DNA of 64,000 nucleotides. Source: Halichondria panicea. Taxonomy: Eukaryota; Porifera; Demospongiae; Suberitida; Halichondriidae. Numbering within the stretch: position 1 is the stretch's first letter; the number at the start of each line of letters is the position of its first letter. Under the pieces are notes generated by a model that had not been told where the DNA came from, ran no database searches, and saw only the letters and a program-made list of their open reading frames with translations. A program made the position numbers and the translations under genes. Where the stretch lies: positions 10,278,632 to 10,342,631 of the forward strand of contig NC_087377.1 of the NCBI RefSeq assembly GCF_963675165.1, written 5' to 3'. This document shows, piece after piece, positions 30,273-64,000 of the stretch.

Positions 30273-30476
30273 CTAGCTACACATACATATACATAAAATC
30301 AACGGGTAAAGTTTGATTGCTCTGATCGGCCTCATCATTGCGTACTCTGGATCTTCTACAGCCATCTTTAGCTGTGCCTTCTCTTTATATTGCTCCAGGT
30401 TCCCTCCATCACAGGGTGTGGTATTGGGGAGCACAAACTGGAGCTTCCTGGGGGGTTGAAGATTTGATAGGGGCAA
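30273..30476 (-). pseudogene. Fragment of Ig/FN3 receptor tail exon
   Basis: Encodes PPRKLQFVLPNTTPC, EDPEYAMMRPIRA and a KLYPLIL end, matching the last exon of receptors A, B, D and E at clearly reduced identity. The earlier part of that exon and the other six exons are absent. A relic of a sixth receptor copy. Confidence 0.7.
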
Positions 30477-30525
30477 GATGTAACGTGGGCTGTTGTTGGG
30501 TGTTGGGAATGTATCACATTATTGT

Positions 30526-31268
30526 GTACAAGGTTTTCTGAAGGGAGTGTCAACTGTTCAGTCAAATTAGGCACCCCAATATCGTCCAGTTTCTGGGAAT
30601 GGTTTTTGAAAAGGGTATACAATATCCCATCCTAGTCACGGAATTGCTCCACTGATTTGAGAAGTTGTCTTGAACATGCACTACGGTGTTCTCTGCAATC
30701 AGCTACTCCATCCTTCATGATGCGTCACTGGGCCTGGCCTACCTTCACAGCCAAACACCACCAATTATCCACTTGAACATCCAAGCACAGGTATTCTTCT
30801 GTCTGCCAACATGACAGCCAATTTTCTGACTTTGGGTCCGCCATGATATTCTACCAGCAAATGACACATGCCCCTGGAAGTCTATCATATATGCCCCCTG
30901 AGACCTTGGTTGATGACCCTCACTATGATGCAAGTGTAGATGTGTTCTCATTTGGAGCATTAATTAATGACTGAAACGTTTACAGTTGCCATTGCCAGAG
31001 ATTGGCCCTGCTCGAAAATATCCAGACGCTGATACTGGGATACCCATGCATATGGGATACCTATGCATATAGACGATTAGTTGTATCAGAAGTTGAACAG
31101 AACGCCACCAAAACCTACTCAAAAAAATTGATGAGGAGCACCCACTGATGGACCTCATTACCAGCTGTCTCAGCAACAACCCAGATCAAAGGCACAAAGT
31201 ATTGAGTTCGTCAACAAATTGGATATGCTCAAAGAGATTGATGCATATTACGAGCACAGAAAATAGTT
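30526..31268 (+). pseudogene. Degraded copy of the kinase of the kinase-ZU5-Death gene
   Basis: Parallels 52125-52870 (shared ACAAGGTTTTCTGAA, CCCCAATATCGTCCAGTTTC, GACCTTGGTTGATGACCCTC, CACCCACTGATGGACCTCAT) but with many gaps and shifts. The start and N-lobe are missing. Plus strand, placed before receptor A as the fuller copy is placed before D. Confidence 0.75.
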
Positions 31269-31299
31269 AGAAAAAAACATTGCAAACTGGTATATAATT

Positions 31300-31830
31300 A
31301 TATAGACTTGGGCCACTTTTGTAAGTTAAGATTATCAGGAATCTGTAGCCATATTGTATTTATAGAGGTATTACATGCAACTTCGCCTTATCCATATTTA
31401 CCACACAATAATGTACAAACACTATAATTATTGCAGATCGATATCCTGAGTATAGAAGTTGTCAGCGAAACAACAATTATTGTTACACTGATGCCGCAAC
31501 TGTAACCGAGTTGTAACATGGGCTGTTGTTGTCGAGGGTGGTGTTGAGATACTCGGGCATGTATATAATTAAAGATGGAACGTTCCACATGATAGGGAAC
31601 CCTCAGCTTGAGCATAAAAATATATGAAACTGGGTTTTATCTCCATCACTGGGCTAATATGCAACAATTCTGCAATTGTTACGTTTTCTACCAGTTCAGA
31701 ACTGCTTTGATATGATTCAGCAAGTTAGACACCACAAATTATCTCAGCCCAGCTTGGTGGTTGTAAGAATTCTGTTTGTTGTTACTGTACATTGTGGGCA
31801 GTCACAGAGGAAGTATGGCAAACCTATATA
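31300..31830 (+). pseudogene. 3' relic of kinase-ZU5-Death gene and flank
   Basis: Repeats the segment encoding SIEVVSETTIIVT and then GATGCCGCAACTGTAACCGAG, the counterpart of DAATVTE at 55047. The ZU5 part between them is deleted. Similar pieces are at 48890-49310 and, in part, 56205-56480. Confidence 0.6.
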
Positions 31831-31894
31831 GTGATCTAAAATCAAATCTGAATCGTTATAATTATGTAGACGCCATGACATAGGATAGAATACC

Positions 31895-32968: not shown

Positions 32969-34888
32969 TTAAGTTGATAAAATCAAAGGCGAAGGCTTGA
33001 CTGCTTGGATTGGCCTCATCATTGTGTACTCTGGCTCTTCTAAAGCCACCTTTAGGTCTGCCTTCTCTTGATCTTTCTCCAGGTTCCCTCCATTACAGGA
33101 TGGAGCGTTGGGGAGCACGAACTGAAGCTTCCTGGGGGGTGGAAGATCTGGTGGGGGCATGTCAAAGACGTAACGTGGGTTGTTGTTATCGAGAGGGGTG
33201 TTAGGAGTGCTCGGTGTGCTAGCGGATAGAAGGACACGTAACGGTTCTCCACCAGGACTCTCATACACAGGACCACCTCCTTCGTAAATGGGATTTAGCT
33301 TTGTGGCTGATGATCTTGTTCGCAATGTGCTTGGTCGTCCATTATTGGCCGTATCAACCGACATTTTTCTTAGATCTGAATGTATGAGGTATAATTAATA
33401 CCATGCATGCAGATGTGAACAGTCAATGTTTGACTGATGCTCTTACATTTTGCTTTTTTCCTTTGCTTGCAGTAAAGAGCTAAGAAGATGAAGAAGAGTA
33501 CAAGGGAAACGGCCAAACACACAGCAAGCCCTCCAATGGCTGTGTTATGTATTTGTACTTCTTGATTACCTATACCTGTGAATAGATACGGAAAGTGAAG
33601 CAAGCTTAGTAAAGCACAACATACCGGCAAACAAGTCCCACTGTTATCGTCAATCACAATTTATAGCACATGGTGAATTTCAAAACAAAATGCTTCACTC
33701 ACTCTGAGAATGCAGTACTTCAATAACAATATCTTGTCTTGACACAGTGAGTCCTACTGTGCTTCGTTCTTCTATAATTACCCTATAATTAGCTCCAACA
33801 CTCAGTCCAGAATGAACACTGTACAAAACATCACCATAGGATTGCAGGGTAGAGTTTCCGGAAACGTTCTCAAGATAAACTGTATACTCGACATCTTGGA
33901 AGGAACAAACATAAGCTGGCTGTATATAAATAAACATTATCCAATGCATGTATGCATGGTATTCTTTAAGTTGAACGTACTTCAAACCATATCTCCAAGT
34001 GTGGTGCACTGTCTCTGTCGTACAAAACTCTCCATTGAATTTCAACAGGATCAAGTGCTATAGAAAAAACAGGCATGAAAGAACATTCAATTTAGTAATT
34101 GACTTACGAATTGGATATCCTGCAATGACACTTGCTGCATTGCTCCCTAATGAGTTGTATACTGTCACAGTGTATTGTAGCTCGTGGCAATTGCTAGGGG
34201 CAGTATCGATGACATCCACATACATACGTTGTTGACCCAATGTCACATTTCTCATTGTGGAATCAGACGTGTTGTAAATTAGCAGTGAGTATGCAGTGAT
34301 GTTGAATCCAGTGTGGGTGAAGGGTTTGTTCCAAGTGATGGTGAGTGACAAACCATTATCGGTGTAACTGAATCGTGGCTGGGGTTCAGATGGTGGTCCT
34401 GTGCATATACACGAGTTTAAATACACACACATAGTATCATTGGAGCCTAAAGTATCTATTTTTTTATTACCTACTTGTTACCTGCAATAATGAAGAGCTT
34501 GTCTTGTTGGGTGTTCGGGTCAAAACCAAAACAAGATATTTTCGAACTATTGTTGTACTCATAAGCTGTGATAGTCAGCCTTAAAAGCAAGTAATCCGAT
34601 ATAGTATCATTCCTTATAGGGACATTAATAAAGAAGCCCCTAGTCGGATCAGATTGGTATCTAAAAGTGTCGTTGATTTTCCACTCCGCAGAGCGACCAA
34701 TTACCTCACAAATGAATGTTATGTTTCCACCTGGGGCTACAGCATCAGTTGACTGAGAGAAATTTAATATTTCTGAAGAAAAATCATCATGACAGCAACA
34801 TATTCAAGGCTTTCAATTATTTACCTGCAGTTTGCACTGATGACAGAGCCATTGTCAGGAACAGTTGTAATACGAAACAGTAGTACAT
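32969..34888 (-). CDS. Receptor A: Ig-FN3-FN3 single-pass receptor
   Basis: Seven exons (34888-34825, 34772-34482, 34398-34108, 34057-33981, 33919-33703, 33575-33447, 33375-32969) sum to 1476 bases, 491 residues. Exon 1 is a signal peptide (MYYCFVLQLFLTMALSSVQT). Exon 2 is an Ig-like domain (PGGNITFICEV, KISCFGF). Exon 3 is an FN3 domain (PPSEPQPRFSY, LTITWNKPF, LQYTVTVYNSLGSN). Exons 4-5 are a second FN3-like domain (DVEYTVYLENVS, SVGANYRVIIE). Exon 6 has the TM helix and a basic stop-transfer (CKQRKKAK). Exon 7 is the tail with NPIYE, VYESPGG, RYVFDMPPP, LPPPRK and EYTMMRP. YESP fits YxxP and YTMM fits YxxM SH2-binding motifs. Likely a cell-surface signalling receptor of unknown ligand. Exon domains are cleanly separated by phase-1 introns. 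Confidence 0.85.
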
Positions 34889-35267: not shown

Positions 35268-35360
35268 TCAGTATACCATGCAGGATCGAAGTCATCAAGT
35301 CTGTGTGCAGTAGCTGTCTTAGTGTGCAAGTTTTAACCGTTAACCGAGTCAACAGAATGC
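35268..35360 (+). pseudogene. Relic signal-peptide exon of a CCP receptor, upstream of A
   Basis: Matches exon 1 of CCP1 (39423-39510): AAGTCATCAAGTCTGTGTGC, GCAGTAGCTGTCTTAG, ending near ATGTAAGTCA. One C is lost just after the ATG, breaking the frame, and the TATA at the matching place is changed to TGTAAA. No CCP exons follow. About 160 bases downstream an open stretch (35522-35672, NGTLEYDMDEDAF) might be a relic CCP tail, which is very uncertain. Confidence 0.7.
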
Positions 35361-36440: not shown

Positions 36441-36558
36441 CACCATTGGAGTGGGCGGGATCCCTATATACCCCCTCCACCACCACCCACACTCCCTGGC
36501 GGACATGTGTTTTCATGTAATGCAACATCATGAAAACAAAATTACACTCATTCAAACT

Positions 36559-36922: not shown

Positions 36923-39005
36923 TTAAGTAGATAAAATCAAAGGCGAAGGCTTGACTGCTCGGATCGGCCTCATCATGGTGTACTCTGGCTCTTCTAAAGC
37001 CACCTTTAGGTCTGCCTTCTCTTGATCTTCCTCCAGGTTCCCTCCATTACAGGATGGAGCGTTGGGGAGCACGAACTGAAGTTTCCTGGGGGGTGGAAGA
37101 TCTGGTGGGGGCATATCAAAGACGTAACGTGGGTTATTGTTATCGAGGGGGGTATTGGGAGTACTCGGTGTGCTAGTTGATAGAAGGGCACGTAACGGTT
37201 CTCCACCAGGACTCTCATATACAGGACCACCTCCTTCGTAAATGGGGTTTAGTTTTGTGGCTGATGATCTTGTTCGCAATGTGCTTGGTCGTCCATTATT
37301 GGCCGTATCAACCGAGATTTTTCTTAGATCTGAATGTATGAGGTATAATTAATACCATGCATGCAGATGTGAACAGTCAATGTTTGAGATGCTCTTACAT
37401 TTTGCTTTTTTCCTTTGCTTGCAGTAAAGAGCTAAGAAGATGAAGAAGAGTACAAGGGAAACGACCAAACACACAGCAAGCCCTCCAATGGCTGTGTTAT
37501 GTATTTGCACTTGTTGATGACCTATATACATGTGAATAGACACGGAAAGTGAAGCAAGCTTAGCAAAGCACAACACACCGGTGAACAAGTCCCACTGTTA
37601 TCGTAAATTCAAAATAATTATAGTACATGGTGGATTTCAAAACAAACTACTTCGCTCACTCTGAGAAGGCAGTGCTTCTACTGTGCTTTGAACTACAGCA
37701 AAGCACAACACAACACACCAGTAAACAAGTCCCACTGTTATTGTCAATCACAATTTATAGCACATGGGGAATTTCAAAACAGAATGCTTCACTCACTCTG
37801 AGAATGCAGTACTTCAATAACAATATCTTGTCTTGACACAGTGAGTCCTACTGTGCTTCGTTCTTCTATAATTACTGTATAATTAGCTCCAACACTCAGT
37901 CCAGAATGAACACTGTACAAAACATCACCATAGGTTTGTAGGGTAGAGTTTCCGGAAACGTTCTCAAGATAAACTGTATACTCAACATCTTGGAAGGAAC
38001 AAACATAGGCCGGCTGCATATATATAAATAAACATTATCCAATGCATGCATGTGCATGTATGCATGGTATTCTTTAAGTTGAACGTACTTTAAACCATAT
38101 CTCCAAGTGTGGTGCACTGTCTCTGTTGTACAAAACTCTCCATTGAATTTCAACAGGATCAAGTGCTATAGAAAAAACAGGCATGAAAGAACATTCAATT
38201 TAGTAATTGACTTACAAATTGGATATCCTGCAATGACACTTGCTGCATTGCTCCCTAATGAGTTGTATGCTGTCACAATGTATTGTAGCTCGTGGCAGTT
38301 GGTAGGGGCAGTATCAATGACATCCACATAGTACATACGTTGTTGACCCAATGTCACATTTCTCATTGTGGAATCAGACGTGTTGTAAATTAGCAGTGAG
38401 TATGCAGTGATGTTGAATCCAGTGTGGGTGAAGGGTTTGTTCCAAGTGATGGTGAGTGACAAACCGTTATCGGTGTAACTGAATCGTGGCTGGGGTTCAG
38501 ATGGTGGTCCTGTGCATATATACGAGTTTAAATACGCACACACATAGTATCATTGGAGCCTAAAGTATCTATTTTTTTTATTACCTACTTGTTACCTGCA
38601 ATAATGAAGAGCTTGTCTTGTTGGGTGTCCTGGTCAAAACCAAAACAAGATATTTTCGAACTATTGTTGTACTCATAAGCTGTGATAGTCAGCCTTAAAA
38701 GCAAGTAATCCGATATAGTATCATTCCTTATAGGGACATTAATAAAGAAGCCCCTAGTCGGGTCAGATTGGTATCGAAAAGTGTCGTTGATTTTCCACTC
38801 CGCAGAGCGACCAATTACCTCGCAAATGAATGTGATGTTTCCACCTGGGGCTACAGCATCAGTTGACTGAGAGAAATTTAATATTTCTGAAGCAAAATCA
38901 TCATGACAGCAACATATAAATTAAGGCTTTCAATTATTTACCTGCAGTTTGCACTGATGACAGAGCCATTGTAAGGAACAGTTTCACTACGAAACAATAG
39001 TACAT
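36923..39005 (-). CDS. Receptor B: Ig-FN3-FN3 single-pass receptor
   Basis: Same seven-exon plan as A: 39005-38942, 38886-38596, 38509-38216, 38165-38089, 38013-37797, 37521-37399, 37329-36923, 1473 bases and 490 residues, no break. It differs from A by an extra Tyr in FN3-1 (RMYYVDV), a shorter exon 6 that opens GHQQVQIHN after a different acceptor, and scattered substitutions. The intron between exons 5 and 6 carries a broken partial copy of exon 5 (37655-37760). The tail keeps NPIYE, VYESPGG, EYTMMRP. Its start lies 417 bases from CCP1, head to head. Confidence 0.85.
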
Positions 39006-39422
39006 CTTTAACAGCTTGCAACGATTCCACTGAACATTATGATTATAGCTAGTTCGAGGATGTATCATATATGCGTTTGTTTGGCATGCAGATTATGACT
39101 AGAACAGATAATGAAACCAAAAACAGAAATGCTTAGTTAACACCGTACGTGCAGCACTATGACAGTTATGCAATACAAATTATTGTGACACACAATATAG
39201 AGGGCTCAAACAGATCGAGTTAAAGAATCAGACAGTATGAATAAGCCTAACAGTTGCTAAGTATTGCTGACATGCACATGAATGCATGAATTCAATTACA
39301 TTTTATTAAGAAATGTTTCCCTATCTCACCACAACCCCCACACATATGCATACCTGCACGTATAGCTCGGCTATAAACAGACTCAGTCTCATAATCTTTG
39401 CACATAGCTACCTCATGCAATT
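39006..39422. promoter_or_regulatory. Bidirectional promoter region, receptor B / CCP1
   Basis: The 417 bases between two divergent start codons must hold both 5' UTRs and promoters. A TATAAA at 39372-39377 lies about 46 bases before the CCP1 ATG, and a TATA lies at a similar distance before CCP2. Shared control of the pair is inference. Confidence 0.55.
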
Positions 39423-41608
39423 ATGCCAGGATCCAAGTCATCAAGTCTGTGTGCAGTAGCTGTCTTAGCGATAGCGCAAGTTTTGACTGTTAACTCAACA
39501 CTATGTATATGTAAGTCACAGTTACAAACACATCGCTATATTCTGTGTATGCATGCATGTTATGTATAATATATATTTTCGTCTAACAGCTTGCACGGCA
39601 CCATTACCGTACCTACAAAAGATAATTTCCCACCCTGCTAGAGAAATCCGATATGAAACTGTCGCAGACTTACAAAACCCACTATGGTGCATCGATGGAG
39701 TCGGTGCAATATCAAGTCGTCTTGATAAGTTTGGTGACATTGAAGCACCAGAGGGACACATTCTTACATATACCAATCCTTTATCAAGTGATATGGCCAA
39801 TAATAAGGTGCTGTATTTAGTTGATCATGCAACGAACAATTGCACTGATATCAACAGTGCAGTGGAAATATCTTCAGCAGTTGGAAATATAAACTCAGCC
39901 ATTTTGATAATGTTACACATTGTCGAAGGTACGTGTGTTTCACTTCATGATAAACCTCGCATAACTCTGTTCATCAAAATAATTGGCTAATATAACCACT
40001 CACAAATACGCATGTATATTGCAGCTACCTCATGTCCTAAACCACCACCCCTAATGAACGGACGAGTGAGTACCACAATCAAAGAGGACAATAGTAGAGA
40101 AATCCACACAGCTGTCTACAGTTGTGATGTAGGATATTACTTGGATAGCAACGAGACAAGAGAATGTGTGAGAGAGATTGACGAACAGATTGGACAATGG
40201 ACGAGTTCACCACCAGCTTGCATTTGTGAGTTATTAACTAAAATTATACTTGGGTCAATTGATGTTTACAATGCATGTAATTACAGTGCAACCCCTCTTT
40301 AAGGGACACCTTTGGGCCCTTATAATTTATCCCCTTGTTTAGAATAGGGGTTGTTTTGTACACAAAGTGTTCATTGCAGCGGACCTGACCGTAGGCCTTT
40401 ATATCGTAGTTGACCTTTCTTCAGTGGTGGCAGTTAAGAGGTGTTCCACTGTGAACTTACATATGTTACCTTATACAGCTATTACATGTGAAGTGCCGAC
40501 AATAGCCAATGGTACCGTTACCAATAGTGCTTTTGATTCTGACGAAATGCAAACAAATGAAACTGTAGAATACGGAACTGAAATAATCTATCGTTGTAAT
40601 GCTGGATTCAGTCTAGCTGGAGATTATCTACCAAGAACTTGTCGCCAGAGTAACAACAGTGGCGTATGGAGTGGTACAGCACCATATTGCAAGCGTAAGT
40701 GAATTGATTTAAACACTTGTATTTTACTTTTATCACTATACAGCTAATAATTGTACACAACTATCTGAAATCAATTATGGCCTCATGCCTGAATATCGGG
40801 ATTCTAACGACACAGCTCTAAACAGTTTGAATCAAGTTGCCTTCTCAGTGGGAACTATCGCTAGCTACGGTTGCCAGAGAGGATACAAGTTAAGCGGCAA
40901 TGGAACAAAAGAGTGTCTTCTTACTGGAGAGTGGAGTAGTCCAGGAAGTGTTGAATGCAAAGGTATTGTTGTGCTTTATTTTTTGGTGACTCACTCTCTC
41001 ATTACATGCATGTTGATGTGCAGTGATAGAATGTCCTCATTTGGAAAAACCTTTGAACGGATCTATAAGTTTCAGCAGCAATTTGACAGTTGATGGAGTG
41101 GCAGAGTACACATGTAATGATGGCTACAAACTAGACAGAGGGAGTGCTAACAGAACATGTTCTTTAGATAATGATAATACTACTGCCACTTGGGATGGTT
41201 ATCCTGCAGTATGTACACAGAATAGTCTTATTAGTAAGTCAAATCCTAGTTCATGCATGCATCAAAATTAATCACTGTATTTGTATAGGTAATATGCAAG
41301 AAGCATTGAATGGGACTATGAATAATGGGACACAGAACTGTGAACCAGAACACTCAAAAGAAGTCAATGACATTTGGAGAGCAATATCAATTGTCATGGG
41401 GGTTTTGTTGTTGCTATTTGGAATTCTTGGATTAGCAGTATTCATCTGTGTCAGGAAATCAAGGCAAACGAAGGAATATCCCATACACAGTAACGAAGCA
41501 ATCACACACTGTCCGGTATAAATAAAAACATATGTTCATGCACCATAATATGCATCGTGTACATTTTCCTTTATATAGGATGTGATTGTCAATAATAATG
41601 AACTTTGA
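39423..41608 (+). CDS. CCP1: four-sushi-domain single-pass receptor
   Basis: Eight exons: 39423-39510, 39590-39928, 40025-40225, 40479-40694, 40744-40962, 41024-41233, 41289-41515, 41579-41608. They total 1530 bases, 509 residues, all phases agree. Exon 1 is a signal peptide (LCAVAVLAIAQVLTVNS). Exon 2 is an unnamed N-terminal domain of about 113 residues with LWCIDG, TYTNPLSSD, NNCTD and LHIVEG, shared with CCP2. Exons 3-6 are four CCP/sushi domains, each with four cysteines and the end W..PP.C or equivalent (QWTSSPPAC, GVWSGTAPYC, GEWSSPGSVEC, TWDGYPAVC). Exon 7 holds a TM helix (SIVMGVLLLLFGILGLAVFI) and a basic stop. The tail is short. CCP domains bind proteins, as in complement regulators and selectins. 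Paired head to head with receptor B. Confidence 0.85.
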
Positions 41609-48882: not shown

Positions 48883-48889
48883 AATTATA

Positions 48890-49310
48890 GGCTTGGGCCA
48901 CTTTTTTAAGTCAGGAATCTGTATTTATAGAGGTATTAGTCATATACATGCAATTTCGCCTTATCCATATTACCACACAATAATGTACAAACACGTACTA
49001 TATTGCAGATTGATATCCTGAGTATAGAAGTTGTCAGCGAAACAACAATTATTGTTACACAGATGCCGCAACTGTAACCGAGTTGTAACATGGGCTGTTG
49101 TTGTCGAGGGGGGTGTTGAGATACTCGGGCATGTATATAATTAAAGATGGAACGTTCCACATGATAGGGAACCCTCAGCTTGAGCATAAAAATATATGAA
49201 CTGGGTTTTATCTCCATCACTGGGCTAATATGCAACAATTCTGCGTTTTCTACCAGTTCAGAACACTTAGTGCTTTGATGTGATTCAGCAAGTTAGACAC
49301 CACAAATTAT
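48890..49310 (+). pseudogene. Relic of kinase-ZU5-Death gene 3' segment
   Basis: Near-identical to 31300-31740 (GGGCCACTTTTTTAAGT, TTTATAGAGGTATTA, the SIEVVSETTIIVT-coding piece, GATGCCGCAACTGTAACCGAG). No kinase part remains. It marks a third copy of the module after CCP2. Confidence 0.65.
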
Positions 49311-49552
49311 CCCAGACAGGCCCCCAAAACATTTTGAGGCCTTGTGAAGGAGGCTAGCCTATGACTAGCACAGCAACTCAAGAGCAATAAAACTAAACTA
49401 ACAACGTACAACTACATGAGACATGCACTGTGGACTGGAATCAAGAGTCTTAGACTAAGAGAAGTACGTATGGCTCCTGCTAGGCTGGATCCAGAGTCAG
49501 TCAACAACCAGTCACAATTCTACTTTCTTGACATACCTATAGGCCTACCGTA

Positions 49553-50473: not shown

Positions 50474-50530
50474 CCTCGGGTAATGAAGAGCTTGTCTTTT
50501 TGGGTGTCCGGGTCAAAACCAAAACAAGTG
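50474..50530 (-). pseudogene. Fragment of receptor exon 2 end
   Basis: AATGAAGAGCTTGTCTTnTTGGGTGTnCGGGTCAAAACCAAAACAAG matches the 3' end of the Ig exon of receptors A-E. Nothing else of a receptor remains. Confidence 0.65.
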
Positions 50531-50627
50531 GGGCTTGCTGCACTGTTTGCAGTTTTTGTGGGTGGGGCTCTCCAGGATTACTCATACTTGAGCATGCGCA
50601 GAAAGCAACCAATATTATTACCCACTA

Positions 50628-51868: not shown

Positions 51869-53117
51869 ATTATAATTACTCTCTGAAAGTGCTCACGGAT
51901 ACGTACTTTAATTGTATCTACAATCGCAGTACAACTAAGTCCAATGGCGTCTATTACAAGACATGCCCCTATAAACTTAGATGAATTCACTTTAAAAGAC
52001 GTTCTCATTTCTGAAAACGAGCTGGGATATGGCTCATCGGGAAACGTCCTTAAACTTGAATATCAAGGCTTGAAGTGTGCAGGCAAGAAAATTTATCAAG
52101 TATTGAATGAATCAGATTATTATGTACAAGGTTTTCTGAACGAGTGTCGACTGCTCAGTCAAAATTAGGCACCCCAATATCGTCCAGTTTCTGGGAATTG
52201 TTTTTGAAAAGGGTACACAATTACTCATCCTAGTCACGGAATTCCTTCCCACTGATTTGAGAAGTTGTCTCGAACACTATGGTGTTCTCCACGATGAGAT
52301 CAGCTACTCCATCCTTCATGATGTGTCACTGGGCCTGGCCTTCCTTCACAGCCAAACACCACAGATTATCCACTTGGACATCTCAAGCACGGGGATTCTT
52401 CTGTCTGCCAACATGACAGCCAAAATTTGTGACTTTGGGTCTGCAATGATATTCGAAGGCAAGTACCAGCAAATGACTTTTGCACCTGGAAGTCCACCAT
52501 ATATGCCTCCTGAGACCTTAGTTGATGACCCTCACTATGACGCAAGTGTGGATGTGTTCTCATTTGGAGCATTAATGGTCGAAATGTTTACGGCAAAGTT
52601 GCCACTGCCAGAGATTGCTCGTGCTCGAAAAGATCCAGCTGGGATACTCATAGTTATATCGGAAGTTGAACGCCGCCAAAACCTACTCAACAAAATTGGT
52701 GATAAACACCCACTGATGGACCTCATTACCAGCTGTCTCAGCAACAACCCAGATTGAAGGCCCAAAGTATTTGAGTTTGTCAACAGGCTGAAGGGCATGG
52801 TCCTACAGTATCATTCTGGCAACAAATTGGATATGCTCAAAGAGATCGATACATTACAAGCACGGAAGATAGAGTTAGAAAAAGACAGAGGAGAGGCACC
52901 TTTGACAGGTATAGACTTGCATGGGCCATGCACTTTTGTAAGAAGATGATCAGTTCCTGATAATCATCTCTAGCCACATTGCATTTATAGAGGTATTATT
53001 CATACAGCTTCGCCTTATCTGCATTTACCACACAATTAATCTATGCATGCGCAATACATAATATTGCAGATATCCTGGGTATAGAAGTCATCAGCGAAAC
53101 AACAATTATTGTTACAT

Positions 53118-53826
53118 GATCTCTGCGCAGTTAAGGCCTGGGTCAGGCACTGATAAGATTAATTTTATTCATTGCCTACATTTTATGTAGATCATGTAGA
53201 TCATGTAGTGTTAATGAGATTCATAATGTTTATTAATGTTATTCATTGCATGTGACGTCATAAGGTCAATGTATTTGCTTAGCTAGCTGCTAGAACTATT
53301 ATAGATTATCTTTGGCAACAAATACGGCGGACTAAAACAAGGTAAGAGTAGCTGTTTAGGCCCTCAAAAGATAGAGTATGTTGTTATGATTATGTTTCCT
53401 TGATGGGAAGTAAAAATGTCCAAAACTTTCTTAGCTATGCTAGCTTCTTTAGCTCTGACAGCCACCCTAGAGGTAGGCTATTTTGTGTATCTCAAGAATA
53501 CAATAACTCCTACTCTTCCCATCAAGGATACTAGTACCTAGCTATGAGATGTTCATCTAGCCTTGTTTTTGAAGCTTGATCTTGGCATCTTCAACGCCGT
53601 ATTTGCACTTCTCTTTCTGAAAGTGGCATGACGTCATCACCATTTATGGGACTAATTAGCATAATTGAATTAAGCTAATTAGTTTTTTGGAAAAAGAAAA
53701 CATTGAGCTTCATTTTGGATCATTTTGATGCAGCATACACTGTATATTGCAAATAATACAGCAGTGTGAACATAGTGTAAATTTTGGTATTGAAATCTGG
53801 ACCCGGGCCTTAAGTGCGCAGAGATC
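53118..53826. mobile_element. MITE inserted in the ZU5 exon
   Basis: Inverted ends GATCTCTGCGCAGTTAAGGCC and GGCCTTAAGTGCGCAGAGATC, flanked by AT on both sides. Further inverted pairing inside (CCTTGATGGGAAG / CTTCCCATCAAGG; ACGGCGGA.. / ..CGCCGT). Taking out the element and one AT leaves the exon reading IIVTSLSFKWKG in frame, so it is an insertion into coding sequence. Confidence 0.85.
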
Positions 53827-54670
53827 ATCACTGTCGTTCAAATGGAAGGGACATGGGTTAGAAATTTATATATCAGCCAACTCTCTACCCCCTGAAATTG
53901 ATCAATGTGCTTTGCAAATCTATGCCAGTCTGTCAGGGCAGTACAAAACACCTGACAACAATGAGCTAGTCAGTGCTGTGTTTTGGTTTAGGCCTGTCCG
54001 TACTGCAACTTCGTCCAGCCTTTGACAATTCAAATTCGACATTGCGCAACAAAAGCCACTCAGTGTGAAGAAGTTATCTTTTCTTCGAGCTGTTTGTACA
54101 CAAGAATCTCTGCCGTACGCATTCAAGAAAGTCGAGAAGAATGAATCGTTCTCTGAGAAGAGCTCTTATGGCTATATTCAGGTCACACACTTCTCTGGTA
54201 TGGCTGTGAGTGCTCACCTACAGCCTCATGATAAAGTCAAGACTCTGAGGCTATACAGTGCAAGCCTGTTCTACATAAGGCGAGATATCAGAAGCTGGGA
54301 AATCCACCTAGTTGTAACTTGGGATGAAGATGTCAACAATAATTATTATAATCTCATCAAATTTGCCAAATACTGTAACAATTGCGTTGCGTGCTGGCGA
54401 TATCTTTAATTGTGACTGAAATTTCATCCTAATATACAAAACGTTGAGAAGCACTATAAAAGGAGAGGAGCTATAGTAGGTCCATACATGACTTTAGAAT
54501 TCGATAGTGAGGATATTGAACTCGAGGTTCCAATTGAGGGTTTGAAAATTAGAGGCTGGGAAATACGACCTCTTTTTAGACCACAGGTTAGTAACGGTAC
54601 ACCTGTTTGAAATTGTGAACAAAGCTTTTTTTACGTATGCGTATTAAAGTTGTGAAACACATTGTACAGT

Positions 54671-54893
54671 CAGGGGCGTATAAAAAAAAGAGAGGGCATG
54701 CAATAGCTATCTATAGTACACGTAGCTTAGCCTCGATTCAAGTATGGGCGGATTAATGTGAATTTGTACGAAGACTTCATTGAAGTGCTAAAAATAGATT
54801 TTTAGCACATTTGTGCATTCAATGCACATTCATCCGCCCACATTTGAATTCTGCTGTTTTGCTGTTGCATGCCCTCTCTTTTATACGCCCTTG
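54671..54893. mobile_element. Short hAT-like MITE in UPA intron
   Basis: CAGGGGCGTATAAAA and GAGAGGGCATGCAA at the left pair with TTGCATGCCCTCTC and TTTTATACGCCCTTG at the right. The middle pairs ATGGGCGGATTAATGTG-type sequence. Non-coding. Confidence 0.65.
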
Positions 54894-55874
54894 GTATAAT
54901 AGATTATATTAGATTATATAGATTGGTATAATAGATTATAATCCACATTGTCTGTAGCTTGCTCAAGCACGGATCGACAATTTTAAACCTGGGCGAAAGA
55001 TACCAAGTTGCCAACTAACTGCCAAATTTATCGGATCGGAGGCAGATGCTGCAACTGTAACTGAGTTGAATGTTCCTTTGGTCATCAAAGGAGCCAAGGG
55101 GCCATGCAACATGATTGCCATAGACATTGATTTTCCTTTAGCCATTGAAGGAGCCAAGGAGCCCTGCAACACGATTGCCATAGTCAACAGGCAAGGTAAA
55201 CAATGTATGTTCGTGATAGCTACTCCTTTCAATTGCGTAATACCTTGGTCACTGCAATAATTGTACTATAATAATATTTTATACTCAAGATTTATATTAT
55301 TATGCACTCATGATTCAACAACTTTTTGCAACAAAGCTTATCATTAATTGTACAGAAAATGAAAGTTCTCTGACTGTTGAAAGAATAATGGAAGAAACTG
55401 GGATCACTGAGCAGCAACTAGACATGATGCTTGAAGATTGTGACCGACAGTCGATTGCCGAGTGCTTTGATGATGTCGCCATATACCTAGACCAATTTGA
55501 GCTCTCTCCCGCAGACAAAGAGAATGTTAGACAGCAGCACACTGCTCAAGCTGCAATGACAGCTGCATTGAAGTTTTGGAGCCGGAAAAACCCTTACGAA
55601 GCAACTCTAAGAAAGTTGCTGGCGATAATTATTAATCAGAAAAGAGGAGATACTGCCATCAAGTGTGTAGCTAAAATACTCGAATCAACAGAAAGAAGGT
55701 AGACTGTGATCACTATTTCCTTGACTCCTCGCATATTTACAGTTCTGCACTTTATTTACTTGTCCACTTACATGCATGTAGCTACTATAGCTTATTAACA
55801 CTTTAACAGCATACGTAACGTATACATCACATGCATGCATATAATTTGAACTATAATAGTTGTGTCAGCAATCT

Positions 55875-57776: not shown

Positions 57777-59877
57777 TTAAGTAGATAAAATCAAAGGCGA
57801 AGGCTTGACTGCTCGGATCGGCCTCGTCATTGTGTACTCTGGCTCTTCTAAAGCCACCTTTAGGTCTGCCTTCTCTTGATCTTCCTCCAGGTTCCCTCCA
57901 TTACAGGATGGGGCGTTGGGGAGCACGAACTGAAGCTTCCTGGGGGGTGGAAGATCTGGTGGGGGCATATCAAAGACGTAACGTGGGTTATTGTTATCGA
58001 GAGGGGTATTGGGAGTACTCGGTGTGCTAGTTGATAGAAGGGCACGTAACGGTTCTCCACCAGGACTCTCATACACAGGACCACCTCCTTCGTAAATGGG
58101 ATTTAGCTTTGTGGCTGATGATCTTGTTCGCAATGTGCTTGGTCGTCCATTATTGGCCGTATCAACCGAGATTTTTCTTAGATCTGAATGTATATGAGGT
58201 ATAATTAACACCATGCAGATGTGAACAGTCAATGTTCGAGATGCTCTTACATTTTGCTTTTTTCCTTTGCTTGCAGTAAAGAGCTAAGAAGATGAAGAAG
58301 AGTACAAGGGAAACGGCCAAACACACAGCAAGCCCTCCAATGGCTGTGATATGTATTTGTACTTGTTGATTACCTATACCTGTGAATAGATACGGAAAAT
58401 GAAGCAAGCTTAGTAAAGCACAACACACCGGTGAACAAGTCCCACTGTTATCGTAATCACAATAATATTATAGCACATGTTGGACTTCAAAACAAAATGC
58501 TTCACTCACTCTGAGAAGGCAGTGCTTCAACGTCTTGTATTGACACAGGGCCTACTGTGCTTTGTTCTTTTATAGCTACAGCAAAGCACAACAACACACC
58601 AGTAAACAAGTCCCACTGTGATCGTCAATCACAATTTATAACATATGGTGAATTTCAAAACAGAATGCTTCACTCACTCTGAGAATGCAGTGCTTCAATA
58701 ACAATATCTTGTCTTGACACAGTGAGTCCTACTGTGCTTTGTTCTTCTATAATTACTGTATAATTAGCTCCAACACTCAGTCCAGAATGAACACTGTACA
58801 AAACATCACCATAGGTTTGTAGGGTAGAGTTTCCGGAAACGTTCTCAAGATAAACTGTATACTCGACATCTTGGAAGGAACAAACATAGGCTGGCTGCAT
58901 ATATAATAATAAATAAACATTATCCAATGCACGGTATATATGCATGGTATTCTTTAAGTTGAACGTACTTCAAACCATATCTCCAAGTATGGTGCACTGT
59001 CTCTGTCGTACAAAACTCTCCATTGAATTTCAACAGGATCAATTGCTATAGAAAAAACAGGCATGAAAGAACATTCAATTTAGTAATTGACTTACGAATT
59101 GGATATCCTGCAATGACACTTGCTGCATTGCTCCCTAATGAGTTGTATGCTGTTACAGTGTATTGTAGCTCGTGGAAATTGGTAGGGGCAGTATCAATGA
59201 CATCCACATACATACGTTGTTGACCCAATGTCACATTTCTCATTGTGGAATCAGACGTGTTGTAAATTAGCAGTGAGTATGCAGTGATGTTGAATCCAGT
59301 GTGGGTGAAGGGTTTGTTCCAAGTGATGGTGAGTGACAAACCATTATCGGTGTAACTGAATCGTGGCTGGGGTTCAGATGGTGGTCCTGTGCATATACAC
59401 GAGTTTAAATACACACACATAGTATCATTGGAGCCTAAAGTATCTATTTTTTTTATTACCTACTCGTTACCTGCAATAATGAAGAGCTTGTCTTGTTGGG
59501 TGTCCGGGTCAAAACCAAAACAAGATATTTTCGAACTATTGTTGTACTCATAAGCTGTGATAGTCAGCCTTAAAAGCAAGTAATCCGATATAGTATCATT
59601 CCTTATAGGGACATTAATAAAGAGGCCCCTAGTCGGATCAGATTGGTATCGAAAAGTGTCGTTGATTTTCCACTCCGCAGAGCGACCAATTACCTCGCAA
59701 ATGAATATTATGTTTCCACCTGGGGCTACAGCATCAGTTGACTGAGAGAAATTTAATATTTCTGAAGAAAAATCATCATGACAGCAACATAATCAAGGCT
59801 TTCAATTATTTACCTGCAGTTTGCACTGATGACAGAGCCATTGTCAGGAACAGTTGTAATACGAAACAGTAGTACAT
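57777..59877 (-). CDS. Receptor D: Ig-FN3-FN3 single-pass receptor
   Basis: Exons 59877-59814, 59761-59471, 59386-59096, 59045-58969, 58894-58678, 58379-58251, 58183-57777; 1476 bases, 491 residues, no break. The signal peptide and exon 6 start (GIGNQQVQIH) are like A. The tail is like B/E (ISVDTANN, LLSTSTPS). The intron between exons 5 and 6 has the broken exon-5 copy (about 58500-58600), as in B and E but not A. One tail change is EYTMTRP for EYTMMRP, which removes the YxxM methionine. Upstream sequence matches A. The gene therefore looks mosaic between A-like and B-like copies. Confidence 0.85.
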
Positions 59878-60256: not shown

Positions 60257-60350
60257 TCAGTATACCATGCAGGATCCAAGTCATCAAGTCTGTGTGCAGT
60301 AGCTGTCTTAGTGTGCAAGTTTTAACCGTTAACCGAGTCAACAGAATGCG
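60257..60350 (+). pseudogene. Relic signal-peptide exon of a CCP receptor, upstream of D
   Basis: Same relic as at 35268-35360, near-identical, with the same lost C after ATG. It predates the A-B to D-E duplication. Confidence 0.7.
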
Positions 60351-60674
60351 CATGTAAGTCACATGCATGCAGTTAGGCCTGAGCTTACAATAAATTTGCC
60401 TATTATTTAATCAAATCTTGTGCATGTGTAAACTTGAGCATGCATCCTATATGTAGTAACGATGTTGCATGCAAAAACTGTAGCCTTTTGATGACCTATT
60501 ATACCTCAAACTGACAATGGTACCTTGGAATACGATATGGATGAAGATGCGTTTAATGCTACTAAACCAAATGGAACTGATGGCTTCAGCTTGGATGGAA
60601 ATGCAAACCTATATAGTGATCTAAAATCAAATCTGAATCGTTATAATTATGTATACACCATGACATAGGATAGA

Positions 60675-61460
60675 ATACCATTGTGGACGATGTTATAGTT
60701 ATCGGACAATGTAAAAATACACGTTTTGTCGTATTCCATTGTAAATCACGTTGTCATATTCCCATCGTAAATCATGTTCCATTGTGCACATGCGTGCACT
60801 GTCATATCAAATTGTAAACTCACATGAACGTGTGGGCCATGCAAAAGAAAATGGATTTTGTGGGGTCAATTCATTGCGTGGGCATGACAGTTAACCAGCT
60901 GTTCCCTGTTCAGTCTATTAGTCACCTCATGCACTTAGCCAATTTTACACAACGTTCACATTAATATTTTTGTCTCACAGAGTCATTGTAAACGATGTAT
61001 AGGGAGGTGGGAGGTTCTGTTTAGTGTTTCCAACTAGAATACCTTTACATACTTTACCTGCATAAGAAAAATGAAGGAGGGGTATTGAGAGAGTTACAAG
61101 GCACATGTGACTCACATGATCACTGCACCTTAAGGCGTAACGCTAAACAGAAACACTTCCCCTCCACATGTCTGTTACTGTAACATAATTATGGAGAAAG
61201 CTACAGTCAATCATGCCCACGCAATCAAACACATTGACCCCGCGGAGCCATTTTCTTTTGCATGGCCCCCAAAACATTTATGTGAGTGGACGGTTTGATA
61301 TGACAGCGTGCACGGTGAGATACAACAACACATGAATCAAATTATGACAATGTGAATTTATGATGGAATAATTGATTTACAATGGGATACACAACGTGGA
61401 TTTACGATGGTATAATTATGACAATGTGAATTTACGGGGTTTAGTTACCATGAATGCACA
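60675..61460. repeat. Long inverted-repeat element 3' of receptor E
   Basis: Fourth copy, very close to the one 3' of B, with one additional right-arm tandem unit. Confidence 0.75.
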
Positions 61461-61577
61461 CCATTGGAGTGGGCGGGATCCCTATACCCCCTCCACCATC
61501 ACCCACACTCCCTGGCGGACACATGTTTTCACATGGAATACAACATCATGAAAACAAAATTACACTCATTCAAACTT

Positions 61578-61774
61578 AGCCTCGAGACCAGCCATTTGTT
61601 ATCTATCTGAAAGAACGTCCAGGACTGATTTCTTGGACCGATAATTGCCCGCACAAGGTGTATTACCCATGAATATCATTATGATGCTGTTAAACGCTGA
61701 CTCAGCTAGACGAGTTGTACATTGGAACTTGACCAGGCGTTCTTTCAGATAACGAACGACTGGTCTCGAAGCTA
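61578..61774. mobile_element. MITE with TAGCCTCGAGACCAG ends, E copy
   Basis: Near-identical to 36559-36755, as expected from the segmental duplication. Confidence 0.75.
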
Positions 61775-61941
61775 ATTCAAACTGTGTGACAGGGCCTCAA
61801 TCACTAAATGCTACAAAACAAAAAAATTGGAATTCCAAATTGAAAAAAGAAGTAAATTCAATGTCTTCTCTACCTTTTTATTACACTTCTGAACAGCTAC
61901 ACACACGCACGTTACATGTTTTTGAGTATATTAAAATAAAA

Positions 61942-64000
61942 TTAAGTAGATAAAATCAAAGGCGAAGGCTTGACTGCTCGGATCGGCCTCATCATGGTGT
62001 ACTCTGGCTCTTCTAAAGCCACCTTTAGGTCTGCCTTCTCTTGATCTTCCTCCAGGTTCCCTCCATTACAGGATGGAGCGTTGGGGAGCACGAACTGAAG
62101 TTTCCTGGGGGGTGGAAGATCTGGTGGGGGCATATCAAAGACGTAACGTGGGTTATTGTTATCGAGGGGGGTATTGGGAGTACTCGGTGTGCTAGTTGAT
62201 AGAAGGGCACGTAACGGTTCTCCACCAGGACTCTCATATACAGGACCACCTCCTTCGTAAATGGGGTTTAGTTTTGTGGCTGATGATCTTGTTCGCAATG
62301 TGCTTGGTCGTCCATTATTGGCCGTATCAACCGAGATTTTTCTTAGATCTGAATGTATGAGGTATAATTAATACCATGCATGCAGATGTGAACAGTCAAT
62401 GTTTGAGATGCTCTTACATTTTGCTTTTTTCCTTTGCTTGCAGTAAAGAGCTAAGAAGATGAAGAAGAGTACAAGGGAAACGACCAAACACACAGCAAGC
62501 CCTCCAATGGCTGTGTTATGTATTTGCACTTGTTGATGACCTATATACATGTGAATAGACACGGAAAGTGAAGCAAGCTTAGCAAAGCACAACACACCGG
62601 TGAACAAGTCCCACTGTTATCGTAAATTCAAAATAATTATAGTACATGGTGGATTTCAAAACAAACTACTTCGCTCACTCTGAGAAGGCAGTGCTTCTAC
62701 TGTGCTTTGAACTACAGCAAAGCACAACACAACACACCAGTAAACAAGTCCCACTGTTATTGTCAATCACAATTTATAGCACATGGGGAATTTCAAAACA
62801 GAATGCTTCACTCACTCTGAGAATGCAGTACTTCAATAACAATATCTTGTCTTGACACAGTGAGTCCTACTGTGCTTCGTTCTTCTATAATTACTGTATA
62901 ATTAGCTCCAACACTCAGTCCAGAATGAACACTGTACAAAACATCACCATAGGTTTGTAGGGTAGAGTTTCCGGAAACGTTCTCAAGATAAACTGTATAC
63001 TCGACATCTTGGAAGGAACAAACATAGGCCGGCTGCATATATATAAATAAACATTATCCAATGCATGCATGTGCATGTATGCATGGTATTCTTTAAGTTG
63101 AACGTACTTTAAACCATATCTCCAAGTGTGGTGCACTGTCTCTGTTGTACAAAACTCTCCATTGAATTTCAACAGGATCAAGTGCTATAGAAAAAACAGG
63201 CATGAAAGGACATTCAATTTAGTAATTGACTTACGAATTGGATATCCTGCAATGACACTTGCTGCATTGCTCCCTAATGAGTTGTATACTGTCACAGTGT
63301 ATTGTAGCTCGTGGCAATTGCTAGGGGCAGTATCGATGACATCCACATACATACGTTGTTGACCCAATGTCACATTTCTCATTGTGGAATCAGACGTGTT
63401 GTAAATTAGCAGTGAGTATGCAGTGATGTTGAATCCAGTGTGGGTGAAGGGTTTGTTCCAAGTGATGGTGAGTGACAAACCGTTATCGGTGTAACTGAAT
63501 CGTGGCTGGGGTTCAGATGGTGGTCCTGTGCATATATACGAGTTTAAATACGCACACACATAGTATCATTGGAGCCTAAAGTATCTATTTTTTTTATTAC
63601 CTACTTGTTACCTGCAATAATGAAGAGCTTGTCTTGTTGGGTGTTCGGGTCAAAACCAAAACAAGATATTTTCGAACTATTGTTGTACTCATAAGCTGTG
63701 ATAGTCAGCCTTAAAAGCAAGTAATCCGATATAGTGTCATTCCTTATAGGGACATTAATAATAAAGAAGCCCCTAGTCGGGTCAGATTGGTATCTAAAAG
63801 TGTCGTTGATTTTCCACTCCGCAGAGCGACCAATTACCTCGCAAATGAATGTGATGTTTCCACCTGGGGCTACAGCATCAGTTGACTGAGAGAAATTTAA
63901 TATTTCTGAAGAAAAATCATCATGACAGCAACATATAAATTAAGGCTTTCAATTATTTACCTGCAGTTTGCACTGATGACAGAGCCATTGTAAGGAACAG
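61942..64000 (-). CDS. Receptor E: Ig-FN3-FN3 receptor, start codon beyond window
   Basis: Exons 64000-63961 (partial), 63905-63612, 63525-63235, 63184-63108, 63032-62816, 62540-62418, 62348-61942. The 24 bases of exon 1 expected beyond the edge would bring the total to 1473. Nearly identical to B through exons and introns, including the exon-5 relic (62680-62780). Small differences are an extra codon in exon 2 (ATTAATAATAAAG) and A-type sequence in exon 3 (RMYVDV, not RMYYVDV). No break seen. Confidence 0.85.

What the first reader, a model, noticed from the sequence alone, without database searches (positions are those of the whole stretch)
30273..64000. Amplified three-gene recognition module: kinase-ZU5-Death, Ig/FN3 receptor, CCP receptor
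The sequence shows a repeating order: kinase-ZU5-Death (plus), then an Ig-FN3-FN3 receptor (minus), then a CCP receptor (plus, head to head). Intact or nearly intact parts are A, B, C, D, E, CCP1, CCP2. Relics of the same parts sit where the order predicts (kinase pieces before A and after CCP2, CCP exon 1 upstream of A and D). Families of paired surface receptors with recent duplicates, pseudogenes and conserved tails are typical of immune or allorecognition loci. I know of no described sponge locus with this arrangement. Function is inference.
Basis: partly seen in the sequence, partly recalled or inferred. Interest (0 to 1): 0.88.

Follow-up and report, generated by a model that had tools for sequence, protein, structure and literature searches.

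The report
Sponge paired-receptor gene array
One stretch of a marine sponge's genome repeatedly duplicated a back-to-back pair of cell-surface receptor genes, and in one pair the outer parts of both proteins have drifted far apart together while the rest stayed alike, which makes it a testable candidate for how sponges tell self from non-self.

Summary
The receptors are real; the three-gene module is not. The window lies on an 18.1-Mb contig of the demosponge Halichondria panicea. The repeating unit is a head-to-head pair: a minus-strand Ig-FN3-FN3-TM receptor with a long tyrosine tail, and a plus-strand receptor with an orphan N-terminal domain ('N'), usually CCP repeats, TM and a short tail. 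Seven Ig-FN3 genes are each back to back with an N gene (5) or its leader-exon relic (2); the array runs ~13.7 kb past the window. Genome-wide, five N domains were found (E<=1), all here. The kinase belongs to a large dispersed family: a bystander. A 97% block duplication contains one island, ~42980-46590, where identity falls to ~43-82%: the outer exons of both partners plus their shared promoter. Best reading: a receptor/co-receptor pair whose outer domains diversify as a cassette, convergent in architecture with Botryllus fester/FcoR pairs. Allorecognition is plausible and untested. Against it: type I (A, B, D, E) ectodomains are nearly identical, and the island's exons show dN/dS of only 0.28-0.43.

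The parts
30294..30506 (-). relic of an Ig-FN3 receptor tail (64% identical to B tail)
   Evidence: tblastn; blastn 30290-30497, 81-82% to the other tails
30507..31492 (+). kinase relic upstream of A; not part of the repeating pair
   Evidence: 76.5% to 52105-53120; several stops
32969..34888 (-). A: type I Ig-FN3-FN3-TM-tail receptor, complete open frame; partner only a relic
   Evidence: exons with GT-AG and open frame
35283..35360 (+). relic of the CCP1 leader exon, head to head with A, stop in frame
   Evidence: tblastn
36923..39005 (-). B: type I Ig-FN3-FN3-TM-tail receptor, 501 aa; a RefSeq isoform starts at 39405
   Evidence: gene model; RefSeq protein P0002; alternative start
39006..39422 (.). 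B/CCP1 intergenic stretch, inferred shared promoter; start codon of the RefSeq isoform of B (39405) and of CCP1 (39423) lie 18 bp apart in opposite directions
39423..41521 (+). CCP1: signal, orphan N domain, 4 CCP, TM, short tail
   Evidence: gene model; Pfam Sushi x4; RefSeq P0001 (RefSeq C-terminus differs)
41826..45143 (-). C: type II Ig-FN3-FN3-TM-tail receptor; tail frame shifted by 1 nt after NPIYEG relative to C'
42980..46590 (.). divergence island against the second block copy: most of C FN3-a exon, C Ig exon, intergenic stretch, CCP2 N exon
   Evidence: sliding identity; edges; per-exon dS
46010..47572 (+). CCP2: signal, orphan N domain, 2 CCP, stalk, TM, short tail (RefSeq 391 aa)
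48881..49315 (+). duplicated fragment containing a piece of the kinase gene's 3' region, after CCP2
   Evidence: 87.4% to 31294-31747 and 78.7% (48920-49059) to 52980-53116
50479..50556 (-). relic of an Ig exon
   Evidence: tblastn (9e-6); HMM (0.007)
51887..55702 (+). kinase - (weak) ZU5-like - Death-like gene; one member of a dispersed family, judged a bystander; limits approximate
   Evidence: Pkinase 5e-32 and Death 0.0056, below cut-off; ZU5 by 37.5% identity, 9e-9, to L007, no Pfam match; genome-wide family
57777..59877 (-). D: type I Ig-FN3-FN3-TM-tail receptor; tail motif YTMT instead of YTMM
60272..60349 (+). relic of the CCP1 leader exon, head to head with D, stop in frame
   Evidence: tblastn
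61942..64000 (-). E: type I Ig-FN3-FN3-TM-tail receptor; first exon runs to 64024, past the window
   Evidence: partner CCP1' at 64453-66559 in the flank (L009)

Best explanation
The array is built from one two-gene unit. Each unit makes two different single-pass receptors back to back from one short intergenic stretch: a long-tailed 'signalling' chain (Ig-FN3-FN3, tail with NPIY and YT[VIM]M) and a short-tailed 'recognition' chain whose first domain is unknown elsewhere (N, usually on CCP repeats). Shown: the arrangement, confinement to one locus, the open frames, tail conservation, tandem duplication of whole units, and an old shared divergence of the outer domains of both partners as one block in the type II pair. 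Inferred: the stretch is a shared promoter, the two chains are co-expressed and work together as a cis heterodimer (receptor plus co-receptor), and binding by the paired outer domains leads to tyrosine phosphorylation of the long tail and recruitment of PTB- and SH2-domain proteins. Most speculative step: the ligand is a polymorphic self marker or a partner chain on another sponge cell, i.e. self/non-self recognition on contact, rather than a microbe.
For: 7 of 7 Ig-FN3 genes are head to head with an N gene (5) or its leader-exon relic (2). The arrangement is shared by three old types (I, II, III) whose Ig domains are 30-39% and N domains 33-40% identical, so it predates them. N: 5 copies found genome-wide at E<=1, all here (5 of 5 and 6 of 6 candidates scored); no N-domain protein from another species in two protein searches (1 hit of 102 and 2 hits of 346 candidates; the organism name of P0004 is cut off, but it is CCP2' on the same contig); no Pfam family at E<0.03 for any of 5 members. 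Opposed start codons are 18 to 867 bp apart (positions). Identity between types I and II rises inwards: Ig 34-36%, FN3-a 42-43%, FN3-b 58-59%, tail 58% over its whole typed length or 76% over its first ~60 residues. NPIY stands in 7 of 7 array tails; YT[VIM]M in frame in 5 of 7 (D reads YTMT, C is frame-shifted). Divergence island: C/C' dS 0.62 (Ig) and 0.41 (FN3-a) but 0-0.06 in FN3-b and TM; CCP2/CCP2' dS 0.65 (N) but 0.02-0.03 in c1 and c2; identity 96% to 65-82% and back to ~90%. N:S is 33:4 for CCP1/CCP1' plus CCP2/CCP2' c1+c2 against 25:21 for A/D plus B/E, Fisher p=0.0007.
Against: Type I ectodomains (A, B, D, E) are nearly identical, with pN/pS 0.38 (A/D) and 0.30 (B/E), unlike hypervariable allorecognition ectodomains. 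Inside the island dN/dS is 0.43 (Ig), 0.28 (FN3-a) and 0.39 (N) (counts, ratios): its exons are old, not fast-evolving in amino acids. There is one island, between one pair of copies, and one of those copies, C, has a broken tail frame. The 33:4 count leaves out the N exon of CCP2 and the CCP2 3' part, and does not differ significantly from neutral site numbers (one-sided p=0.07). The 76% tail figure is for a chosen conserved part. No expression, polymorphism or binding data. Structure models are poor (N mean pLDDT 50.7; B 36.6). Microbe recognition would give much the same pattern.
Confidence: 0.4

Rival explanations
1. Microbe-recognition receptor cluster: the same two-gene receptor array, but the ligands are bacteria and the duplications and divergence come from an arms race with microbes, with no role in telling sponge from sponge.
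For: Sushi and FN3 domains occur with SRCR domains in H. panicea pattern-recognition receptors, and 62% of its identified PRRs are expressed in only some individuals (passages of PMC8242945). The neighbourhood holds a NACHT gene and a Death-like exon. The higher N:S of the N genes fits an arms race.
Against: A single-locus orphan domain always paired with the same co-receptor family is not the dispersed pattern of the large PRR families; this is an argument from architecture only.
Confidence: 0.34
2. Linked receptor-ligand pair acting in trans: the N/CCP protein on one cell is the tag read by the Ig-FN3 receptor on the neighbouring cell; head-to-head linkage keeps matching tag and reader together, as in a self-incompatibility locus.
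For: Outer exons of both partners diverge as one linked block of similar age (dS 0.62 and 0.65); one chain has a signalling-type tail and the other a short one.
Against: The same data fit a cis heterodimer; a shared promoter would put both chains in the same cell, which favours cis pairing or simultaneous display.
Confidence: 0.12
3. By-product of tandem duplication: an ordinary adhesion or cytokine-type receptor and an unrelated neighbour happened to sit head to head and were copied together; linkage has no functional meaning, and the island is an old paralogous stretch whose flanks were homogenised by gene conversion.
For: Tandem duplication preserves order without selection (general knowledge); A, B, D and E show homogenised ectodomains; dN/dS of 0.28-0.43 in the island is that of ordinary constrained proteins; the Ig/N correlation across pairs (r=0.99) is what linkage alone would give.
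Against: Pairing kept in three types with 30-40% identical outer domains and in 5 of 7 units although it can be lost (A, D); the island's limits lie close to the outer exons of both genes.
Confidence: 0.12
4. Assembly artefact: the second block (D-E-CCP1'-C'-CCP2') is the other haplotype of the first block, placed in tandem by the assembler.
For: 97.2% identity over 9.7 kb is within the heterozygosity some marine invertebrates show (recalled); a passage of PMC11067881 describes a retained divergent Alr1 allele in the Hydractinia assembly.
Against: Both outer flanks differ: left of A and D only matches of 76-83%; CCP2 is followed by the kinase region, CCP2' directly by F; the 3' region of A and D (32816-33776, tail, TM and introns) differs by 7.8% while their ectodomain region differs by 0.5-3%. 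If true, the island would be an allelic polymorphism, which would strengthen the recognition reading.
Confidence: 0.1

Closest known systems
Botryllus schlosseri fester family / fester co-receptor (FcoR) pairs in the fuhc allorecognition locus
   Same: Two different receptor families, one short-tailed and one long-tailed with tyrosine motifs, encoded next to each other as pairs; gene-content variation in units of pairs; Ig and sushi domains; long-tailed chain of 520-610 aa there, 489-510 aa here (passages of PMC12065747; lengths here).
   Different: No sequence homology shown or directly tested; fester has Ig+sushi and three TM segments, the sponge short-tailed chain has an orphan N domain (plus CCPs) and one TM by eye; FcoR tails carry ITIM, hemITAM or YxxI/L/V, the sponge tails NPIY and YTxM (only F also has one YxxI); polymorphism, co-expression and function are reported there and unknown here.
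Hydractinia Alr genes of the allorecognition complex
   Same: Clustered family of single-pass Ig-superfamily receptors with pseudogenes and low identity between members (passages of PMC11067881).
   Different: Alr genes are one family without an obligate head-to-head partner of another family (recalled); function shown by genetics there, untested here.
Sponge SRCR and other PRR families
   Same: Sushi and FN3 domains on surface receptors in H. panicea (passages of PMC8242945).
   Different: No SRCR match in the five receptors of this locus that were scanned; one locus rather than hundreds of genes.
Sponge aggregation factor genes
   Same: Sponge allorecognition candidates; in the passages seen of PMC12065747 the sponge citations are Grice and Degnan 2015 and Grice et al. 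2017.
   Different: Extracellular matrix-type proteins (recalled); none of their domains (recalled) was found in the proteins scanned here.
Mammalian NK receptor clusters (KIR, Ly49, NKR-P1/Clr), recalled
   Same: Tandem arrays of related surface receptors with conserved tails; NKR-P1/Clr also interleaves receptor and ligand genes (recalled).
   Different: C-type lectin or Ig only; not a head-to-head two-family unit with an orphan domain (recalled).

Membership tests
Botryllus fester/FcoR | two receptor families encoded as adjacent pairs, duplicated as pairs | tested here: met
   7 of 7 Ig-FN3 genes paired with an N gene or its relic; block duplication of A-B-CCP1-C-CCP2
Botryllus fester/FcoR | fester chain: Ig + sushi + three TM | tested here: not met
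   Sponge chain: N + CCPs + one TM (TM count by eye); no Pfam match for N
Botryllus fester/FcoR | sequence homology to fester or FcoR proteins | not tested
   No direct alignment was made; protein searches returned only H. panicea proteins, with limited sensitivity. Filed as convergent, not as a member
Botryllus fester/FcoR | long-tailed chain with ITIM, hemITAM or YxxI/L/V | tested here: inconclusive
   Of 4 tails examined (A, B, C', F) only F has a YxxI (YVSI); all 4 have YxxM; ITIM/hemITAM consensus was not searched as such
Botryllus fester/FcoR | pairs co-expressed; pair content varies between haplotypes; controls fusion/rejection | not testable with these tools
   One genome, no reads, no grafts
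Hydractinia Alr | clustered single-pass Ig-superfamily receptors with pseudogenes | tested here: met
   Ig weak by Pfam (0.012) and FN3 0.0036, profile matches to Ig/FN3 chains in the PDB
Hydractinia Alr | sequence homology to Alr proteins | not tested
   Search with B returned only H. panicea proteins (2 hits; only the 7994 candidates sharing most words were scored); Alr sequences were not aligned
Hydractinia Alr | highly polymorphic ectodomain controlling fusion | not testable with these tools
   No population data
Sponge SRCR receptors | SRCR domain | tested here: not met
   Pfam scans of B, CCP1, C', CCP2, CCP2'
Sponge aggregation factor | Calx-beta / Wreath-type extracellular repeats (recalled) | tested here: not met
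   No such Pfam match in B, CCP1, C', CCP2, CCP2'
   Kinase precedes 2 of 7 Ig-FN3 genes (one relic, one open frame) and belongs to a genome-wide family

The most novel reading that the evidence does not exclude
This is a sponge allorecognition locus: a supergene of head-to-head receptor/co-receptor pairs in which the outer domains of both chains and their shared promoter are inherited and diversified as a single haplotype cassette, with a recognition domain (N) that exists nowhere else. Pair-wise cassettes of this kind would then have arisen independently in sponges and in tunicates, implying that two-chain contact receptors are a general solution to allorecognition in sessile animals.
Probability: 0.2. 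Interest if true: 0.93.

Novelty: new variant of a known kind. Interest (0 to 1): 0.73.

Why it matters
Sponges accept or reject grafts with high specificity, which is taken to indicate a polymorphic genetic system (passage of PMC5450542), yet a 2025 review (passages of PMC12065747) calls the mechanisms of invertebrate allorecognition 'a complete mystery'. This locus gives a bounded ~47-kb target in a sponge that already has a chromosome-scale genome, and a precise prediction: variation between individuals should peak in the C-FN3a/C-Ig/promoter/CCP2-N stretch and segregate with graft outcome. [quoted passage not shown] a second, apparently unrelated case would turn an oddity into a pattern.

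Tried and rejected
Kinase as third module member: rejected on the genome-wide search. The general 'conserved tail, variable ectodomain' claim: rejected for A/B/D/E, where in the A/B comparison the tail (dS 0.16) has diverged more than the Ig exon (dS 0.07); it holds between types, and for C/C' as far as FN3-b and TM were compared. Domain identity of N: Pfam, PDB by sequence, AlphaFold2 (mean pLDDT 50.7) and Foldseek (0 of 183 matches with E<=0.001; several Ig domains among the weak hits, e.g. sDscam Ig1 at E 2.1) left it unidentified; a divergent Ig-like fold is only a hunch. Structure of B: mean pLDDT 36.6 with a two-sequence alignment, not used. Shared promoter words across the three pair types: 8-mers unremarkable (2 against 0.4 expected, shuffles reaching 4; 123 of 500 random triplets of the region reach it); 7-mers 16 against 4.5, above the maximum of 14 in 100 shuffles, but reached by 13 of 500 GC-matched triplets from the same region: a weak signal, not followed further. 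Rfam: no match at gathering cut-offs. Phage search with the promoter: no match, uninformative. Further stretches at C1:10.41-10.51 Mb: FN3 relatives, but no N or CCP match in the three 10-kb pieces read. Literature: the listings (one search had 0 results) and passages of PMC12018476, PMC5450542, PMC12065747, PMC8242945 and PMC11067881 showed no described sponge locus of this arrangement; no paper was read whole, and only openly licensed papers are searchable.

Full report
Where it is. The window is C1:10278632-10342631 of a 131.5-Mb, 39-contig genome. I fetched 50 kb upstream and 70 kb downstream and give positions past 64000 in window coordinates.

What is there. Hand-built models with GT-AG junctions and open frames give B (501 aa: signal, Ig, FN3, FN3, short linker, TM, long tail) and CCP1 (501 aa: signal, N domain, four CCPs, TM, short tail). 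A, D and E are the same kind as B. Pfam supports Sushi in CCP1 (6.7e-32) and fn3 in C' (2.5e-6). Ig is weak by Pfam (0.012 at best), but a profile of the Ig-FN3 part matches 28 PDB sequences with E up to 1, mostly titin, contactin, NCAM2 and similar chains (best 2.1e-22, mainly through the FN3 part). RefSeq holds B (P0002), CCP1 (P0001), C' (P0003), CCP2' (P0004) and CCP2 (P0005); the RefSeq end of CCP1 and first exon of B differ from my models. The CCP2' isoform held (P0004) lacks one of three near-identical CCP exons, as exon skipping would give. Signal peptides and TM segments were judged by eye.

The repeating unit. In order along the plus strand: A(-), CCP leader relic(+), B(-), CCP1(+), C(-), CCP2(+), kinase gene, D(-), CCP leader relic(+), E(-), CCP1'(+), C'(-), CCP2'(+), F(-), CCP3(+). 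All seven Ig-FN3 genes are head to head with an N gene (5) or its leader relic (2). Opposed start codons are 18 bp apart for B/CCP1 and E/CCP1' if B's RefSeq isoform start is used (418 bp for B from the first ATG of my model), 867 for C/CCP2, 357 for C'/CCP2' and 377 for F/CCP3 (positions). Because the B isoform's start codon lies 18 bp from CCP1's, the two transcripts should abut or overlap at their 5' ends; that they share a promoter is an inference.

The N domain. Searches with CCP2' N and CCP3 N found the same 5 places each at E<=1 (5 and 6 candidates, all scored), all in this array. Two searches of 5.8 billion proteins returned only proteins of this contig (1 of 102 and 2 of 346 candidates); that search needs shared 5-residue words, so remote relatives can be missed, as indeed CCP2' was. 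None of 5 members matches Pfam at E<0.03 or a solved structure at E<0.8. The AlphaFold2 model is too poor to name a fold. In type III no CCP was found in the N gene, whereas its Ig-FN3 partner F has three CCPs between FN3 and TM, so N, not CCP, is the constant element of the short-tailed chain. F and CCP3 are read from open frames and profile hits, not from full models.

Long tails. Between types, identity rises from the outside inwards. I versus II (B against C and C'): Ig 34-36%, FN3-a 42-43%, FN3-b 58-59%; tail, B against C', 58% over the typed length and 76% over its first ~60 residues. I versus III: Ig 32.5%, FN3-a 27%, tail 44% whole, 57% over the first part. NPIY occurs in 7 of 7 array tails and in 5 of 5 downstream tail matches, though the latter were found with a profile that includes the motif; the relic at 30294 lacks that part. 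YT[VIM]M in frame occurs in 5 of 7 array tails (D reads YTMT, C is frame-shifted) and 4 of 5 downstream ones. F also has a YxxI; A, B and C' have none. NPxY as a PTB site and YxxM as a PI3-kinase SH2 site are general knowledge, not tested here.

Block duplication and the divergence island. 33616-43258 matches 58591-68296 at 97.2% over 9.7 kb. In 200-bp windows identity is 0.955-1.0 from 33800 through C FN3-b1 (the first window, 33600, is 0.89), falls to 0.81-0.82 at C FN3-a, is 0.69-0.76 around C Ig, 0.43-0.68 in the intergenic stretch (the lowest values on as few as 19-35 aligned bases) and 0.65-0.78 around CCP2 N, then returns to 0.90-0.92 over CCP2 c1 and c2. The next window reads 0.62 because CCP2' carries two extra c2-like exons there, followed by 0.83-0.94 up to 48 kb. 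The C intron between Ig and FN3-a is 1503 bp against 64 bp in C'. The left edge is sharp at ~42980, inside the FN3-a exon; the right edge lies about the N-c1 intron and is less sharp, and the right flank is less similar (~90%) than the left (97%). Per exon, dS is 0.62 (Ig) and 0.41 (FN3-a) but 0-0.06 in FN3-b and TM for C/C', and 0.65 (N) but 0.026 and 0.022 in c1 and c2 for CCP2/CCP2'. The outer exons of both partners therefore share one old divergence, framed by recent sequence. This could be an old haplotype polymorphism captured by the duplication, or an old paralogous core with homogenised flanks; the data do not separate the two. dN/dS within the island is 0.28-0.43, so age, not fast amino-acid change, makes it stand out. 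Ig and N identities over the ten comparisons of five pairs correlate (r=0.99), as linkage alone would give and with two close pairs dominating.

Selection. Nei-Gojobori counts: A/D 20 nonsynonymous to 16 synonymous, B/E 5:5 (pN/pS 0.38, 0.30); CCP1/CCP1' 10:2, CCP2/CCP2' c1+c2 23:2 (pN/pS 1.4, 3.25; neither different from neutral on its own, p=1 and 0.14). The contrast 33:4 against 25:21 has Fisher p=0.0007; 33:4 against neutral site numbers has one-sided p=0.07. Left out of that pool: CCP2 N (56.6:32.4), C/C' (Ig 47.2:23.8, FN3-a 23.3:20.7, FN3-b and TM together 3:4), A/B, D/E and the CCP2 3' part. So the short-tailed chains appear less constrained than the type I long-tailed ones; positive selection is suggested at most.

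The kinase. 52140-52757 is a clear kinase (5e-32); Death is below Pfam's cut-off (0.0056); ZU5 has no Pfam match but 37.5% identity, 9e-9, to a stretch of L007 that passes the ZU5 cut-off. Genome-wide, 150 of 722 candidates were scored and all 150, the window's copy included, pass 1e-20; by my count of the list 56 of the other 149 are 59-68% identical, 50 of them on C3 between 0.87 and 2.46 Mb. One copy with an open kinase frame lies here. A relic precedes A (76.5%) and a ~140-bp piece follows CCP2. It was copied along at least once but is not part of the unit.

How it most likely works. Two chains made in the same cell from one divergent promoter (inferred), one short-tailed with the N domain outermost and one long-tailed with Ig outermost, are most simply read as a receptor and its signalling co-receptor. 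Their outer domains diverging as one block in type II is what a joint binding site would predict. The step to allorecognition rests on the parallel with Botryllus fester/FcoR (pairs encoded next to each other, expressed together, varying as pairs; passages of PMC12065747) and on sponge graft specificity (passage of PMC5450542); it is inference. Microbe recognition is nearly as likely.

Known or new. It meets no full set of defining features of any system considered: fester's triple TM and the SRCR domain were not met, homology to fester, FcoR or Alr was not tested directly. By architecture it resembles fester/FcoR. The ten literature searches showed no described sponge locus of this kind, within an openly licensed library of which I saw listings and passages. 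I rate it a new variant of a known kind.

Noticed in passing
window 28164-29633 (-): NACHT (NLR-like) ORF (Pfam 1.4e-11) near an ORF ending in a GDVETNPGP stretch, which resembles a 2A ribosome-skipping peptide (motif recalled).
   Followed up: no
window 19146-23621 (-): ORFs of a gene with a multi-TM C-terminal part (by eye) and many 'SVSISDSTLSNNSA'-type repeats, pectate-lyase-like by eye; the repeat part shows 68-76% internal DNA repeats.
   Followed up: no
window 5517-5846 (-) and 14089-14436 (-): A stretch resembling the kinase gene's Death exon (32%, 4e-16) and an ORF that looks Death-like by eye (no Death match in Pfam): the window's left half also holds immune-type genes.
   Followed up: partly
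downstream flank 81400-81660, 98922-100955, 104492-106515, 110307-110657, 123207-129040 (-), window coordinates: Further Ig/FN3-type receptors or tails with NPIY (four of five also YT[VI]M); 97999-101269 and 103545-106835 are 90.6% copies. A plus-strand ORF with weak V-set similarity (0.006) at 107960-108397 faces the second copy, so divergent pairing may extend to another partner family.
   Followed up: partly
C3:0.87-2.46 Mb of the same genome: Tandem family of about 50 kinases 56-64% identical to the window's kinase.
   Followed up: no
69864-70641 in window coordinates (L009): CCP exon of CCP2' recently triplicated (98-98.6% DNA identity between copies), with exon skipping implied by the RefSeq isoform; CCP2 has a single copy.
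   Followed up: partly
C1:9888751, 10111044, 10153719: Three places with near-equal matches (37-38%) to the first FN3 domain of B, outside the array.
   Followed up: no
downstream flank 113656-117120 (+), window coordinates: 1155-aa ORF of a LINE-like element (by eye) with a GDIELNPGP stretch near its start, again 2A-like (motif recalled).
   Followed up: no
intergenic stretches 39006-39422, 68721-69076, 75901-76276 (window coordinates): Slight excess of 7-mers shared by the three pair types' promoters (16; reached by 13 of 500 GC-matched random triplets from the region); possibly a common element, not resolved.
   Followed up: partly
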